From NCBI RefSeq assembly GCF_023167545.1, contig NZ_AP014647.1:124001-188000 (forward strand): 64,000 nucleotides of DNA, given 5' to 3'. Below the pieces are notes generated by a model that saw only the letters and a list, made by a program, of their open reading frames with translations, was not told the origin of the DNA and did not search any database. Source of the stretch: Streptococcus constellatus subsp. constellatus (lineage in GTDB: Bacteria > Bacillota > Bacilli > Lactobacillales > Streptococcaceae). Below, piece by piece: positions 53,277-59,434 of the stretch. Position numbers and translations under genes: made by a program. Positions within the stretch are counted from its first letter, which is position 1. Every line of letters begins with the position of its first letter.

Positions 53277-54188
53277 ATGATTGATAAAATGGAACTAGGT
53301 GAATTTTATAGAGAATTACGGGTAGCAAGAGGTGTGAAGCAAAATGAAGTTGCGTGTGAAGGACTGACAGCCTCACAGCTTTCTAAGTTTGAGTTAGGGC
53401 AATCTATGCTGTCGGCAGATAAATTATTTCTTGCCATTGAAGGAATCAATATGACATTTGCAGAGTTTGCATATAAACTCAATAGTTATCAAGAATCTCA
53501 ACATGTTCAATTGGGACATCAAGTTGTTGATTTATTTGTTCATCAGGATAAAGACGGCTTGGAGGATCTGCTTCACAAAGTTCAAGAAAAAGTATCCTCT
53601 CAACAATATATCCGTCTGAATAAAATTGTGATTCAAAATGCCTTGCACTCCTTGGATTCTAGTTATATTTTAAAAGAAGAAGATAAGCAATTTATAACAG
53701 CTTATCTTTTTGCCATTGATTCATGGACTTGGTTTGAGCTCTATCTTTTCTGTAATGCTATGCCCTTTTTGGAGAATCAAGATTTAATTTTTCTTTCAAC
53801 AAGTTTGATGGAGAAATCTAAGGAATTTAAAGAGTTAGTCTATAATCAAATTTATATGAAAAGTTGTTTCTTAAATGTCATTTCAGAAATGATGGAACGT
53901 GAACTCTATCAATACATCAGCATTTTTGAAAGTGAGCTAGAAAAGTTGCTGACACCCTACGATGTCTTTGAAAAATTACTTTTGCAATTTTTAAGAAAAA
54001 TCAATATCTATCTTCAGACAGGAGGAGAAAATCAAAAAGAGATTGAAGATTTCATTCAATCTCTGAAAGTACTGGATAATCCGCAGTTAATAGCATTATT
54101 AACTTTGAAATTACAGCAATATGAAAAATTATTAAAAACAGAAGATAACAGGACAGAAAATAATAATATCCATGATAATAGTGAATAG
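53277..54188 (+). CDS. rgg: Rgg-family peptide-responsive transcriptional regulator
   Basis: A 303-residue Rgg/RRNPP regulator. The N-terminal helix-turn-helix (residues ~8-62; YRELRVARGVKQNEVACEGLTASQLSKFELGQS) is followed by the all-helical repeat domain that binds short imported peptides. Rgg proteins of this type answer to short hydrophobic peptides (SHP). The last 19 codons overlap, on the opposite strand, a 27-codon SHP-like gene. That convergent 3' overlap is one of the known rgg/shp arrangements. GGAGAACC lies before the ATG. No conserved Cys that would mark the GadR/Rgg enzymes-linked branch is evident. Confidence 0.9.
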   Translation: MIDKMELGEFYRELRVARGVKQNEVACEGLTASQLSKFELGQSMLSADKLFLAIEGINMTFAEFAYKLNSYQESQHVQLGHQVVDLFVHQDKDGLEDLLHKVQEKVSSQQYIRLNKIVIQNALHSLDSSYILKEEDKQFITAYLFAIDSWTWFELYLFCNAMPFLENQDLIFLSTSLMEKSKEFKELVYNQIYMKSCFLNVISEMMERELYQYISIFESELEKLLTPYDVFEKLLLQFLRKINIYLQTGGENQKEIEDFIQSLKVLDNPQLIALLTLKLQQYEKLLKTEDNRTENNNIHDNSE

Positions 54189-54215
54189 AATGGCGATAAA
54201 TTTGCGTTTGCTCAT
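54132..54215 (-). CDS. shp: Short hydrophobic peptide (SHP-like pheromone precursor)
   Basis: A 27-codon gene on the minus strand, convergent with rgg and overlapping its 3' end by 57 bp. The peptide has a basic start (MSKRK), a hydrophobic middle (FIAILFTIIM) and a C-terminal part DIIIFCPVIFCF. This fits streptococcal SHP precursors, whose mature pheromones start with Asp or Glu followed by Ile/Leu-rich residues (for example DIIIIVGG). AAAAGGAGATC lies about 6 bp before the ATG, and TTGCAA-N18-TATACT lies upstream. Processing by Eep and import by Ami would be expected. The two cysteines are unusual. Confidence 0.8.
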   Translation of the reverse strand: MSKRKFIAILFTIIMDIIIFCPVIFCF

Positions 54216-54237
54216 TTGGGATCTCCTTTTTAAAAAG

Positions 54238-54268
54238 TAGTATACTCTAAAAATTCAGAAAATTGCAA
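54238..54268 (-). promoter_or_regulatory. shp promoter with putative Rgg-controlled motif
   Basis: On the minus strand TTGCAA (54268-54263), an 18-nt spacer and TATACT (54244-54239). The element GAATTTT-N5-TATACTA (54256-54238) recurs with the same spacing in the divergent promoter at 54331-54349. A direct repeat ATTGCAA (54262-54268, 54271-54277, read on plus) flanks the -35. Confidence 0.6.
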
Positions 54269-54330
54269 GAATTGCAAATTAGAAAGTTTATAGAATAAAA
54301 ATGTCAAATATGCGATTTTAAAGAAATGGT

Positions 54331-54349
54331 GAATTTTAATGATATACTA
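54331..54349 (+). promoter_or_regulatory. Promoter of the small ORF/MFS operon with the shared motif
   Basis: GAATTTT-N5-TATACTA, identical in plan to the shp promoter on the other strand; TGA before TATACT makes an extended -10. Both promoters lie in the same 165-bp divergent region, so joint control by Rgg is likely but unproven. Confidence 0.6.
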
Positions 54350-54380
54350 GTCACATTAAGCATTAAATGATAAGAAAGAG

Positions 54381-54560
54381 TTGCAAGAAAAAATCAAAAG
54401 AATATTCATAACACGTTCTTATCGAGATAAACATCATTTATTAGTTTTTCAAAGTGAAAATAATCGGCAAGATGTTTTTGATTTTGGAATTGGGACATTG
54501 GGAATTTATTGGACATTATTGGGGAATAAATTCCCGTTTGAAATACACTTGGAGGAATGA
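54381..54560 (+). CDS. Small unrecognised ORF coupled to the MFS transporter
   Basis: A 59-codon frame from TTG 54381 to TGA 54560, starting about 30 nt after the predicted transcription start. It encodes a soluble peptide with a basic first half (KIKRIFITRSYRDKHH) and a second half with FDFGIGTLGIYWTLLG, ending EIHLEE. I do not recognise it. AAGAAAGAG before the TTG is a weak ribosome site. Its end overlaps the annotated MFS ATG (ATGA), which argues for translational coupling. It could also be the truncated tail of a larger gene, as no ATG is available. Confidence 0.45.
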   Translation: MQEKIKRIFITRSYRDKHHLLVFQSENNRQDVFDFGIGTLGIYWTLLGNKFPFEIHLEE

Positions 54561-55789
54561 AATTGAATATTTTTCTTTCAAATCGAAACTTTAGGCAACT
54601 TTCAATAAATGAATGGATTTCTACATTTGGTGATACAGTTTTTTACTTAGCGTTTATCAATTATGTATCTTCTTATGCTTTTGCACCTCTTGCGATTCTT
54701 ATGATTACAACATCTGAAACATTGCCGCAAATTATGCAGATATTCACAGGAGTTGTAGCGGATTTTCAAAAGAATCGGATTGGAAAGTACTCTGTTTTGA
54801 TGTTTGTTAAGTTTGTCCTGTACGCAACTGTAGCATTGATACTGGTCGGGACAAAATTTTCACTTGTTTCTGTTTTTCTTATTTGCCTCATCAATTTTGT
54901 ATCGGATACGATTGGTTATTTTTCAAGTGCTATGATAACGCCTATTTATGTAAAAATTATTAACAATGATATGACATCTGCGTTAGGTTTTAAGCAAGCG
55001 ACAGCAAATTTAGTTCGTGTCTTTGGTAATCTAAGCGGAGGCGCTTTGATTGGTTTTATCAATATTGGGATGTTTGCTGGGATGAACGCCTTAACTTTTT
55101 TATTTGCGTTTTTTGGTATCTTATTGATTAGAACAAATCTTGTTCGTTTTGAAGAACAGATTGAAATTACGCAGGCTTTAGATAGCAAAAATTTTTGGAA
55201 ACATTTGCTGGATTCTTTAAAGATTTTAGGAAGCCTTGGAAATATTATTAAACTGATTGGGATTTTATCCATCAATCAAGCTGTCATAAATGTAACGATT
55301 CCTGTGACGACGCTTTTGTTAATAAAGTATCCTTTCGCTGGTTTAGAAACTGGTCAATCCATAGCTATCTTAACAACAGTTGAATTGATTGGTATAGTGT
55401 GCGGTAATTTCCTAAGTGGCAATGTGATGAAAAAAATGTCAACAAAAACAAGTGTTTATCTTAGCCAAGTGATGGAATTCGTGATTTTAGTCGGATTTTT
55501 GAACAATAATTTTCTAGTTGTCTTACTTGCTGCTTTTTTCAATACATTTTCAATTGGAATACTAAGCCCTCGTCTTCAACAATCTGTTTTTAGATTAGTA
55601 CCGGAGCAATCAATGGGTGCTGTACAGTCTGGGATTAGTATGCTCAGTATTGTTTTACCAGGAATTTTATCTATAGTACTTGTTGGGATAGCAAGTAGTC
55701 TGGGGATAGTATATGTTGCTGTATCATTAGGAGTTCTATTATTTTTAGGAATGTTTTTAGTTTATTCAATAAAGAATATTGCTGAATAG
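54557..55789 (+). CDS. MFS transporter in the Rgg/SHP locus
   Basis: A 410-residue major facilitator protein with about 12 membrane helices, of the type often labelled macrolide-efflux-like (MefA/enterobactin exporter-like). It starts NIFLSNRNFRQLSINEWISTFGD and has the cytoplasmic loop VVADFQKNRIGKYSV (about residues 67-81). ATG 54557 directly follows GGAGGA, too close; the in-frame TTG at 54563 has ideal 7-nt spacing and may be the real start. It follows the small ORF behind the motif-bearing promoter. The cargo is unknown; peptide or toxin export is plausible from context. Confidence 0.8.
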   Translation: MKLNIFLSNRNFRQLSINEWISTFGDTVFYLAFINYVSSYAFAPLAILMITTSETLPQIMQIFTGVVADFQKNRIGKYSVLMFVKFVLYATVALILVGTKFSLVSVFLICLINFVSDTIGYFSSAMITPIYVKIINNDMTSALGFKQATANLVRVFGNLSGGALIGFINIGMFAGMNALTFLFAFFGILLIRTNLVRFEEQIEITQALDSKNFWKHLLDSLKILGSLGNIIKLIGILSINQAVINVTIPVTTLLLIKYPFAGLETGQSIAILTTVELIGIVCGNFLSGNVMKKMSTKTSVYLSQVMEFVILVGFLNNNFLVVLLAAFFNTFSIGILSPRLQQSVFRLVPEQSMGAVQSGISMLSIVLPGILSIVLVGIASSLGIVYVAVSLGVLLFLGMFLVYSIKNIAE

Positions 55790-55965: not shown

Positions 55966-56170
55966 TTAAATACAACCTTTCAATTGTTAGAAGAACAGGA
56001 TTTAGCACAAATAACGGGCGGAAATCTAGCAAAAATCACTCCTGGCGGTGGTCCGGGTGCCCCTTATGGAACCTCCCGGCATCTATATGGGATGGGGAAA
56101 TTCTGGTGGTAACGGTGCTTGGGGCTGGGTTGGTCAGCTAGCACCTGCTTTTTCAAAGAAAAGACCATAA
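55966..56170 (+). pseudogene. Decayed double-glycine bacteriocin precursor
   Basis: Reading from 55966 gives a classic double-glycine leader, NTTFQLLEEQDLAQITGG, followed by NLAKITPGGGPGAP. The frame then shifts near 56062-56066 and continues MEPPGIYMGWGNSGG, then NGAWGWVGQLAPAFSKKRP, ending at TAA 56168-56170. AAAGGAGA lies 8 bp before position 55966, but the codon there is TTA instead of ATG. So both the start and the frame are broken. Repaired, the core peptide would be about 48 residues, rich in Gly and Trp, like class IIb or blp-type bacteriocins. Its putative immunity gene follows 34 bp later. Confidence 0.8.
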
Positions 56171-56204: not shown

Positions 56205-56876
56205 ATGTGGAAGAAGACAATAGGATATTATGTATGCATAGGCTGTATTTGCCTATCTTATTATTCTGGTTTAGGGCTTCTGTTTCATTTAGACTTCGTT
56301 AGAAGTTTATCAGATGCTTGGTATTATTTTTGGCTAGCAATTGCTACAGCTTGCCATGTGGCTTTATTGACTTTTGTCATTTATAAACATAAAGAAAAAT
56401 TGATTATCGTTAAACCGCAATTCAAATGGTCTTATATAGGTTATAGTGTAGCAGGTTTCGTTATGAATTTGCTGTGGAATGCATTGGCGACACTGATCTT
56501 TCCGCATGGACAAAATCAAAATGCCATCAATGAAGTTTTGCAATCAATAAGAGGTGCTGCTTTATTTTGGGGGATGTGGATTATTCTGGGTATTCTGACC
56601 CCCATTTGGGAAGAATTGATTTATCGAGGCGTTGTCATGACAGCCTTAAAGAGATTTCAAAGGTTCCGTTTGGATTTAGTCGTTTCTGCTAGTCTATTTA
56701 GTATGGGTCATATTGTGCAGTTTGGCTGGTCAACGACAGATTTTATCTTATATTTTGTTCCCGGGCTCATTTTAGGTTGGGTCTTTAGGAAAACAAATAG
56801 GATCTACTATAGCATGGCAACTCATGTTGCATGGAATAGCTTTCTTGCTCTCTTATATACTCTTTCACAAAGATAG
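56205..56876 (+). CDS. CPBP (Abi/CAAX-like) intramembrane protease, putative bacteriocin immunity protein
   Basis: A 223-residue membrane protein with six or seven helices. The CPBP motifs are complete: E136-E137-L-I-Y-R141 (EExxxR), FSMGH (FxxxH) and HVAWN (HxxxN/B). Members of this family serve as immunity proteins in many streptococcal and lactobacillar bacteriocin loci. It follows a decayed double-glycine peptide gene, which supports that role. AGGGAGGATG precedes the ATG. It stays intact although the peptide is broken, as expected if it still protects against neighbours' bacteriocin. Confidence 0.85.
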   Translation: MWKKTIGYYVCIGCICLSYYSGLGLLFHLDFVRSLSDAWYYFWLAIATACHVALLTFVIYKHKEKLIIVKPQFKWSYIGYSVAGFVMNLLWNALATLIFPHGQNQNAINEVLQSIRGAALFWGMWIILGILTPIWEELIYRGVVMTALKRFQRFRLDLVVSASLFSMGHIVQFGWSTTDFILYFVPGLILGWVFRKTNRIYYSMATHVAWNSFLALLYTLSQR

Positions 56877-57712: not shown

Positions 57713-59434
57713 ATGAGTCTGAGACAAAATAGTTCTCAGTCACAAAAAAGCTAGAGATTCCCAATTATGGAACTCTAGCTTTTTAAGTTTGAGTCGTTCT
57801 CTTATTGTATTTAAGGAGATTATTGGCCATGAGCACTAAACCCATGTCAATTTTCACCTGACGCTTGCCTCTTAGGTTACATCTCTTGTAACCCAAATAA
57901 GCCTTTATCTGCCCAAAGACAGGTTCCACATCAATCTTACGTTGATTGAAAATCTGTCTACCTTCGGGAGATAAAAGCGCTTGGCATTCTTTAGCTTTTA
58001 AGTGTTGATAACGTTCGTTGATATATAGTCCCTTTTGAGGGGCTGATTTAGGTTCATCAGCGTAGTAAACCTTGATTTCCTGTTGAAAGTCCGTCTGTGT
58101 TTTCTGATGTTTGATATGATGAAAACGATAGCACCAGCCATCAGGATGAGTGTAGCTATCCTCCTTGTCATCATAGTACCAATTCGCTAAGTTTCTAGCC
58201 GACTGTTTATACCCTTTCTTCTGTTCCTGATCAAACATGGCATATTTAATCAGGTGGTTCACCTCCTTTTCATCTAAACGAAGGAGGTTCTCTTCACTTT
58301 CATATCCAGCATCTGCGACAACGGTCTTCAAGTCATGCGGATAGGTTTCAAGGAATGGCAGGAGAGTCTTGGTATCTGTCGGATTTGAGAAGACATCATA
58401 ATGAAGAACAAATTGATTTTCAGTAGCGATTTGAAGATTATAACCAGCTTTGAGCTGACCATTCTTCATGTGGTCTTCTTTCATCCGCATAAAAGTGGCA
58501 TCTGTATCTGTTTTGGAAAAGCTGTTACGCCCTTCAAATGTCTCTTGGTAGCCTTCATATTTTTCAGCACGTACTGAAAAATCATCCTTGACTTTACGCA
58601 GGACTTTCTTGAGTTTCCGACGTTGAGTTTTACGTTTATCCTTTCCTTTAACGGGTGTCTCCTCAATGTCTTGGTTCAGTTTTTCCAATTCTTCTTCGAG
58701 GACTTGAGCGAATTCAATCAACTGCTCTGAAGCAATCGGTTCTTCTTCGTCCAGCCTAATGGCCTGATGGATAAGGGGAGTGATTTCTTCTTGAAAATAG
58801 ACCTGTATCTGTTCTTGAAGTTTGACGGAAAACTTGTCTGTGGCCTTTTTCCACACGAAACTATACTTGTTAGCGTTGGCTTCAATCTTAGTCCCGTCAA
58901 TAAACAGACAATCTAAGGTCACTAACTCTTCCATTTTTAAACGAAGATTGAGGTCGATGAAAAGATCACGAATGAGCTCTTCCATTCCTTCAGCGACTCG
59001 AAAACGATTGATGGTGCGATAGCTGACAACCAACTGTCCTGTTAGGTATTGCATAGCCAGATTTTCAATCATCATTTTTTCGATTTTTCGTCCAGAGAAA
59101 ATCCCTTGCGAGTAGGCAAATAGTAGAGCGGCTAAAAGCATTTTAGGGTGATAAGACGGGCGACCAAAGTTATGATAGAACGTGTGGAAGTGACGATCCT
59201 CCAAGGCATTCACCACTTTTTCAATAGTAAAGACGAGATGGTCTTGTGGCAAGAAAGAACTGATTTCTAGTGGTAAAGTTGTTTGATTTGTGTTATAGTG
59301 AATATGCATGGGATAGCCTTTCTAAATGGTTTATTGGGCAATTCTATTTTACCAAGACTATCGCAACCATGCAAAAAGCAACGGCAAATCCGTTGCTTTT
59401 TTTGTAGCAAAGGGACTATTGTCCCAGACTCATT
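57712..59434 (-). mobile_element. IS1182-family insertion sequence
   Basis: About 1.72 kb with one intact transposase gene. Candidate ends are the inverted repeats AATGAGTCTGAGACAAAATAGT (from 57712, shown here in part) and its near-complement ending at 59434, which read outside-in share AATGAGTCTG-GACAA. The left end touches the tipA-like stop codon. No clear target duplication was found. The ends resemble the GGGACAA hairpins elsewhere in the window. A hairpin at 57745-57786 (AAAAAGCTAGAG and complement) lies within the left end. Confidence 0.75.
57783..59309 (-). CDS. IS1182-family transposase
   Basis: A 508-residue DDE transposase. The N-terminal domain (GRPSYHPKMLLAALLFAYSQG, about residues 49-69) and the catalytic LFIDGTKIEANANKYSFVWKK (first Asp near residue 138) are typical, with VVADAGYESEEN (second Asp) and FNQRKIDVEPVFGQIK (Glu) later. 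It is intact from start to stop, so the element may be active. Its stop codon overlaps the hairpin at 57745-57786. Confidence 0.93.
   Translation of the reverse strand: MHIHYNTNQTTLPLEISSFLPQDHLVFTIEKVVNALEDRHFHTFYHNFGRPSYHPKMLLAALLFAYSQGIFSGRKIEKMMIENLAMQYLTGQLVVSYRTINRFRVAEGMEELIRDLFIDLNLRLKMEELVTLDCLFIDGTKIEANANKYSFVWKKATDKFSVKLQEQIQVYFQEEITPLIHQAIRLDEEEPIASEQLIEFAQVLEEELEKLNQDIEETPVKGKDKRKTQRRKLKKVLRKVKDDFSVRAEKYEGYQETFEGRNSFSKTDTDATFMRMKEDHMKNGQLKAGYNLQIATENQFVLHYDVFSNPTDTKTLLPFLETYPHDLKTVVADAGYESEENLLRLDEKEVNHLIKYAMFDQEQKKGYKQSARNLANWYYDDKEDSYTHPDGWCYRFHHIKHQKTQTDFQQEIKVYYADEPKSAPQKGLYINERYQHLKAKECQALLSPEGRQIFNQRKIDVEPVFGQIKAYLGYKRCNLRGKRQVKIDMGLVLMANNLLKYNKRTTQT

What the first reader, a model, noticed from the sequence alone, without database searches (positions are those of the whole stretch)
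53277..54349. Complete Rgg/SHP quorum-sensing pair with an unlisted pheromone gene
A 27-codon ORF on the minus strand (54132-54215) overlaps the 3' end of rgg convergently. It has a strong ribosome site, its own promoter and an SHP-like plan: basic start, hydrophobic core and C-terminal DIIIFCPVIFCF. Known streptococcal SHPs mature to Asp/Glu-led Ile/Leu-rich peptides. The Cys-Pro-Val and Cys near the end differ from the common IVGG ending, so this may be a new pheromone type.
Basis: partly seen in the sequence, partly recalled or inferred. Interest (0 to 1): 0.82.

Follow-up and report, generated by a model that had tools for sequence, protein, structure and literature searches.

The report
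Streptococcal pheromone gene overlapping its receptor
The small unlisted gene looks real: it encodes a probable quorum-sensing pheromone precursor paired with the neighbouring receptor gene, a relative of a known pneumococcal system, but with a two-cysteine peptide whose predicted active part lies wholly on the opposite strand of its own receptor gene.

Summary
Window 54132-54215(-) encodes a 27-aa SHP precursor, convergent with and overlapping an intact rgg (53277-54188). Rgg is closest to pneumococcal Rgg144 (7zcv, 68% identical): a group III SHP/Rgg pair. Of 68 orthologous loci (rgg 55-71% identical), 43 have an SHP in the same place. In 38 of these 43, Pro stands at position 7 of the predicted mature part, as in DIIIFCPVIFCF. 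So it is a new pherotype of a known kind, not a new pheromone type. None of the 43 has Cys in its last 12 residues; this one has two.

Beyond the finding: (1) a divergent operator, two inverted boxes each 23 nt from a -10, facing shp and an MFS gene; (2) a conserved hairpin plus T-run on the shp strand inside rgg, probably the shp terminator; (3) a 57-bp overlap (0-26 bp in the 43) that puts the whole predicted mature pheromone antisense, in codon register, to the receptor's tail; (4) a target region with a lanthipeptide-synthetase relic.

All from sequence; maturation, binding, activation and termination are inferred.

The parts
53277..54188 (+). rgg, receptor/regulator, 303 aa, Rgg144 orthologue
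   Evidence: PF21259 132 bits, TIGR01716 179 bits; model pLDDT 88.7; Foldseek best hit 7zcv 'Rgg144 of Streptococcus pneumoniae', 68% identity
54132..54215 (-). shp, 27-aa pheromone precursor
   Evidence: ORF; SHP in the same place in 43 of 68 orthologous loci
54135..54170 (-). predicted mature pheromone DIIIFCPVIFCF, wholly antisense to rgg
   Evidence: coordinates and register; cleavage before the acid residue by analogy with SHP1299/1555/1509 and SHP144; inferred
54132..54188 (.). 57-bp rgg/shp overlap, codon-on-codon antisense register
   Evidence: in the 43 relatives with shp the overlap is 11 bp in 30, 0 in 5, and 4-26 bp in the other 8
54222..54227 (-). shp ribosome binding site AGGAGA
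   Evidence: sequence
54239..54244 (-). shp -10 TATACT
   Evidence: conserved; 23 nt after the box
54268..54283 (-). shp-side box TCTAATTTGCAATTCT, 3 mismatches to the consensus
54304..54319 (+). target-side box TCAAATATGCGATTTT, exact
   Evidence: box (at most 1 mismatch) in 68 of 68 orthologous loci; only exact copy in the 1.9-Mb genome
54343..54348 (+). target -10 TATACT, 23 nt after the box
54028..54064 (-). hairpin plus T-run inside rgg codons; probable shp terminator
   Evidence: weaker support
54360..54560 (+). relic: C-terminal 66 codons related to a class III lanthipeptide synthetase, no ATG start
   Evidence: 52% identical over 62 aa to an 838-aa ORF in L056 with RamC_N, LANC_like and (just under its cut-off) kinase domains
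54557..55789 (+). MFS transporter, predicted Rgg/SHP target
   Evidence: PF05977/PF07690; about 51% identical to MFS genes in relatives' target regions, 50% to that of L127, S. pneumoniae
55984..56170 (+). VP1-like double-glycine peptide sequence lying in two different frames (ORFs 55984-56112 and 56048-56170)
   Evidence: tblastn of L127 VP1: 50% over 34 aa at 56075-56164, E 0.001; a GG-containing ORF just upstream in another frame; weak match
56205..56876 (+). CAAX-type (Rce1-like) protease; relatives lie in target regions of other species; operon membership here not shown
   Evidence: PF02517; 36% to the L127 protein

Best explanation
A group III SHP/Rgg quorum-sensing module, orthologous to Rgg144/SHP144. 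The 27-aa precursor is made, exported and cut before Asp16 to give about DIIIFCPVIFCF (inferred; genes of the Eep, EcsB/PptB and oligopeptide-binding-protein families are in the genome). The peptide is re-imported, binds the helical domain of Rgg, and the complex acts at two inverted boxes between shp and the MFS gene, each standing where a -35 would be, 23 nt from a -10. This switches on shp (feedback) and, divergently, a transcript carrying the MFS transporter. The shp transcript stops at a hairpin inside rgg. Shown by sequence: genes, overlap, boxes, spacing, conservation, hairpin. Inferred: maturation, binding, activation, termination.
For: Rgg identity. shp in the same place in 43 of 68 loci; closest SHP by eye MSKRLVYLLCGIVADIIIVFPVIFY at L069, rgg 62%. 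Target-side box 68 of 68, -10 at 23 nt 67 of 68, second inverted box 35-37 bp away 63 of 68. In the 1.9-Mb genome a degenerate box+20-26+TATAMT pattern, written to admit both window boxes, has 2 matches, both here, against 0 for its reversed control. Hairpin codons: identical codons in 218 of 249 same-residue pairs against 2267 of 4424 before and 147 of 332 after. Processing and transport families present. Precedents: DIIIFPPFG found by MS (passages); Pshp144 induced by synthetic SHP144-C12 (passages).
Against: No transcript, peptide or binding data. The shp-side box is degenerate here (3 mismatches; 36 of 42 scored loci have 1). With up to 2 mismatches the box alone is not specific: 34 matches in the genome, 7 for the reversed control. 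The target region holds a synthetase relic and a VP1-like sequence split over two frames, so the output may be decayed. 25 of 68 orthologous loci lack shp. DNA of the nearest species (S. intermedius, S. constellatus) could not be fetched, only Rgg proteins. The 68 loci are mostly close mitis-group relatives, not independent, and the pattern that counted SHPs demanded D, E or V before the aliphatic core.
Confidence: 0.9

Rival explanations
1. Decaying module: the pair is orthologous to Rgg144/SHP144, but in this lineage it is on its way out (weakened shp-side box, broken target genes), with little or no signalling left.
For: 3 mismatches in the shp-side box; synthetase relic at 54360-54560 and VP1-like sequence in two frames; 25 of 68 orthologous loci lack shp.
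Against: rgg, shp, ribosome site, both -10s, the exact target-side box and the MFS gene are intact; 38 of the 39 stored 303-aa homologues (P0001, the window's own type, included) end in ENNNIHDNSE, the stretch antisense to shp; one has EDNNIHDNSE.
Confidence: 0.14
2. Receiver of foreign signals: Rgg mainly responds to SHPs of neighbouring species, and its own SHP is secondary.
For: SHP cross-talk between systems and species is reported (abstract and introduction); shp-less orthologues keep rgg and the target-side box.
Against: A cognate shp with its own operator box argues for self-signalling; shp144 induction was called cognate-specific in pneumococcus (passages).
Confidence: 0.08
3. Chance ORF with no function.
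For: Short ORFs are common; the promoter hexamers alone are no better than chance.
Against: 1 such ORF in the window and 0 in 20 Markov controls; same place and plan in 43 of 68 loci.
Confidence: 0.01

Closest known systems
Rgg144/SHP144 of Streptococcus pneumoniae
   Same: Rgg 68% identical to 7zcv; convergent overlapping shp and 23-nt/36-bp operator in the two S. pneumoniae-named loci L035 (= L127) and L063 (= L137); 12-residue mature part with Pro at position 7, EWVIVIPFLTNL
   Different: Peptide DIIIFCPVIFCF with two Cys; overlap 57 bp instead of 11; first target genes are a synthetase relic and MFS, with a VP1-like sequence only further on and in two frames
Rgg1299/SHP1299 (S. thermophilus), mature DIIIFPPFG
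   Same: Group III; DIIIF-x-P core
   Different: Shorter peptide; the fetched loci with DIIIFPPFG ends (L100, L110) have Rgg about 42% identical
MutRS systems (Wyllie and Jensen 2025, PNAS; paper not held)
   Same: Group III SHP/Rgg is said to have been assigned to MutRS, partly on promoter architecture (passages of another paper)
   Different: Could not be compared; whether this operator is already described there is unknown to me
Cys-containing SHP: SHPgp_sali_3 CIYTIVGGV
   Same: A thiol in the mature peptide; seen only after reduction and alkylation (passages)
   Different: One N-terminal Cys, not an internal pair; other Rgg

Membership tests
SHP/Rgg group III | Regulator with HTH and Rgg C-terminal domain | tested here: met
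   PF21259, TIGR01716, helical model; the HTH_19 and HTH_3 matches are below their curated cut-offs
SHP/Rgg group III | shp downstream, convergent, overlapping the end of rgg | tested here: met
   57-bp overlap; definition
SHP/Rgg group III | Precursor with basic start, hydrophobic core and Asp/Glu opening the mature part | tested here: met
   MSKRK... ...M|DIII...; the cleavage site itself is inferred; 42 of 43 orthologous SHPs have D/E there, but the counting pattern asked for D, E or V
SHP/Rgg group III | Peptide secreted, matured, re-imported, activates its own promoter through Rgg | not testable with these tools
   only the presence of TIGR00054 (Eep-type), PF05975 (EcsB) and PF00496 genes was checked
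Rgg144/SHP144 orthologue | Rgg closest to Rgg144 among solved structures | tested here: met
   7zcv best by sequence and structure
Rgg144/SHP144 orthologue | Same operator layout beside shp | tested here: met
   boxes 36 bp apart, 23 nt to each -10, as in relatives; shp-side box weaker
Rgg144/SHP144 orthologue | VP1-type double-glycine peptide gene as first target | tested here: not met
   first come relic and MFS; a VP1-like match (E 0.001) lies after MFS in two frames. A VP1 match was found in 35 of 69 loci, so it is not universal
LCP/RopB | Leaderless 8-10-residue peptide | tested here: not met
   27-residue precursor; definition
MutRS | Promoter architecture and peptide classes of that paper | not tested
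   paper not held; reassignment known only

The most novel reading that the evidence does not exclude
A double-coded signalling module: the entire mature pheromone is written in codon register on the antisense strand of its receptor's C-terminal tail, and the pheromone transcript ends at a terminator written into the receptor's conserved codons, so that ligand and receptor cannot change independently there. The Cys6/Cys11 pair would make the pheromone redox-sensitive (active only in one thiol state).
Probability: 0.15. Interest if true: 0.72.

Novelty: new variant of a known kind. Interest (0 to 1): 0.5.

Why it matters
It gives a probable anginosus-group genome a defined pheromone to test, with a ready-made operator and predicted target. 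The 23-nt/36-bp operator geometry and the hairpin inside rgg are testable rules for the Rgg144 branch. The 25 of 68 loci that keep receptor and target-side box but lack shp invite a direct test of eavesdropping among commensal streptococci. A ligand encoded wholly antisense to its receptor is a neat case of coupled coding.

Tried and rejected
New pheromone type: rejected, because Pro-containing ends are usual in this branch. Constitutive shp promoter 54268-54239: not favoured, although 39 of 42 scored shp promoters have a poorer -35 and some basal activity is possible. Regulon beyond the locus: besides the exact box the genome has 1 match with 1 mismatch and 32 with 2 (reversed control 7 in all); 14 of the 33 are one repeated 16-mer. 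I read 19 of the 33: none has TATAMT at 23 nt, the nearest being TATCTT at L194; 14 were not read. Hairpin by chance: 284 of 3000 synonymous recodings of the window's last 110 codons also give a stem of 9 or more with a T-run, so a hairpin alone is weak. By the same loose rule 68 of 69 near and 4 of 41 far rgg genes have one (only 8 near rows printed, and for L072 it picked another hairpin). The case rests. One search dropped 3 of 69 loci (L021, L050, L070) that its codon motif missed.

A check of the whole window found the split VP1-like sequence, and the text was changed; the odds of the 'decaying' rival rose from 0.12 to 0.14.

Searches with no gain: Rgg alone in genome contigs, viral contigs, 7zcv in papers, 'Rgg box' in papers (unrelated hits), terminator/antisense with rgg and shp (nothing on this by its titles), peptide and name terms in PMC5597970 (0 occurrences). 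Plasmids: 14 records with distant Rggs, at most 28% identical in the 10 listed.

Not in print, as far as searched: the strings DIIIFCPV, IIIFPFLTN, DIIIVFPVIF and PFLTNR in held open papers, 0 in the 4 listed of 5 papers that hold any of six strings; S. anginosus with Rgg and SHP, 6 papers listed, one read in passages. Most subscription papers, the MutRS paper included, are not held.

Full report
Observation. On both strands of the 64-kb window it is the only ORF that meets SHP-like criteria; 20 Markov controls gave none (criteria set after seeing it).

Receptor. The 303-aa product has the Rgg C-terminal domain. Its best solved relative is 7zcv, named by the structure search as Rgg144 of Streptococcus pneumoniae, 68% identical (model pLDDT 88.7). 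Its closest named database relatives are from S. intermedius and S. constellatus, 81-83%, so the genome is probably of the anginosus group; no tool named the species.

Conservation of the pheromone. Of 284 same-genus genomes (own included), 125 have an Rgg match at 1e-40. I fetched all 68 listed matches above 55% identity other than the window's, and 41 of the 75 weaker ones listed. In 43 of the 68 an ATG ORF of 19-40 codons with an SHP plan ends near the rgg stop; in 25 none was found by that rule. In 24 of those 25 the target-side box stands only 39-40 bp past the rgg stop, as if shp and its -10 were deleted; in L070, whose rgg differs at its end, it is at -19. Of the 43, 42 have D/E before the aliphatic core (the pattern allowed D, E or V; L072 has V), and 38 have Pro at position 7 counted from there; the other five end in SHL or LHL. 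None has Cys in the last 12 residues. DIIIFCPVIFCF aligns to EIIIIFPFLTNR without gaps and, up to its last residue, to DIIIFFPFFGG. The closest by eye is DIIIVFPVIFY at L069, rgg 62%. SHP144 and SHP1299 mature forms are EWVIVIPFLTNL and DIIIFPPFG (table passage, passages).

Operator. Aligning the regions upstream of 13 shp genes (12 relatives and the window) showed two inverted blocks. Written as TCAWATWTGCGATTTT, the target-side box occurs in 68 of 68 orthologous loci (at most 1 mismatch), with a -10 at 23 nt in 67, and a second, inverted box (at most 3 mismatches) 35-37 bp away in 63. In the window both boxes keep these distances, but the shp-side box has 3 mismatches. A degenerate box+20-26+TATAMT pattern, written to admit both window boxes, has two matches in the genome, both here; its reversed control has none. 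The box alone with up to 2 mismatches has 34 matches, its reversed control 7. Further copies of the pair lie downstream at L055 and, twice, at L072. The passages that I read of two Rgg144 papers mention no such box; the MutRS paper, said to use promoter architecture, is not held.

Hairpin inside rgg. On the shp strand a 10-bp stem and T-run lie about 68 bp past the shp stop (1 found, 0.1 expected). The hairpin stands in all 66 rgg genes examined (65 relatives and the window; 3 of 69 dropped by the motif), shortened in L027 and L052 and with a broken T-run in L053; all three lack shp. Over eight diverged genes, same-residue pairs use the same codon in 218 of 249 cases within codons 254-263, against 2267 of 4424 before and 147 of 332 after; the best 8 of 275 ten-codon windows all overlap the hairpin. 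After the hairpin the sense strand has no T-run. I read it as the shp terminator.

Overlap. Relatives' Rgg mostly ends at residue 287 and overlaps shp by 11 bp in 30 of 43 loci, by 0-26 bp in the rest. In the window, as in the 39 stored homologues of 303 aa, it runs on by 16 residues, the last of which have low model confidence (291-300 mean 50, 301-303 mean 35). The register is codon on codon, so the hydrophobic pheromone codons face mostly polar tail codons. The commonest tail differences among homologues (K/E, T/A, T/A) can be silent for shp (Phe, Cys, Cys) if made by single steps; this is inference, since only proteins were available. D/A would change Ile9, and V at one place (3 of 39) would change Cys11.

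Target. The target promoter leads into a 66-codon stretch without an ATG, 52% identical to the end of an 838-aa protein in L056 with RamC_N and LANC_like domains and a kinase match just under its cut-off. Then come the MFS gene, a VP1-like double-glycine sequence lying in two frames (weak match, E 0.001) and a CAAX protease gene. Of 69 loci (window included; 1.5-3.5 kb searched) LanKC and MFS matched in 5 including the window, VP1 in 35. In pneumococcus VP1 is called the locus most induced by Rgg144 (passage). Whether these window genes form one transcript is not shown.

Machinery. Eep-type, EcsB and SBP_bac_5 family genes are present.

Judgement. A known kind of system, well supported, with a new pherotype and two structural features (hairpin in rgg, whole predicted pheromone antisense to the receptor tail) that I have not seen described; the search for them in print was narrow.

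Noticed in passing
L007, L009, L011-L015, L022 and others (25 of 68 loci): Rgg144-type loci that keep rgg and the target-side box but have no shp by the rule used: possible listeners to other strains' pheromone.
   Followed up: partly
window 54360-54560: Relic of a class III lanthipeptide synthetase between the Rgg target promoter and the MFS gene; longer matches to the synthetase are at L034, L036, L043, L056.
   Followed up: partly
window 55984-56170: VP1-like double-glycine peptide sequence in two frames between the MFS and CAAX protease genes.
   Followed up: no
window 53277-54188, against P0003-P0041: Mosaic rgg: 38 of 39 stored 303-aa homologues are close to the window's in residues 1-157 and 271-303 but 53-64% in 158-270, the expected pheromone-binding part; P0001 is of the window's own type.
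   Followed up: partly
L083, L093, L098, L104, L108: Convergent small peptides ending in RIWPF after Rggs 42-43% identical; no Asp/Glu.
   Followed up: no
L082, L085, L089, L094, L096, L102: Convergent peptides ending in LPLL, LPFL or LPLI, like the MutS type quoted.
   Followed up: no
L090: Peptide MMQKFTRFFTPPLIIWWFWP convergent with an Rgg.
   Followed up: no
L091, L101: Different hairpins with T-runs antisense inside two rgg genes (contigs matching S. suis records L164, L169) that also have a convergent peptide: perhaps the same solution reached independently.
   Followed up: no
window 57783-59309: 508-aa ORF, transposase-like by recall; one 16-mer inside it recurs at 14 places in the genome.
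   Followed up: no
P0044: A homologue whose frame shifts near the end and reads through the shp region with the same letters as window 54172-54240(+), suggesting that the shp DNA is conserved there.
   Followed up: no
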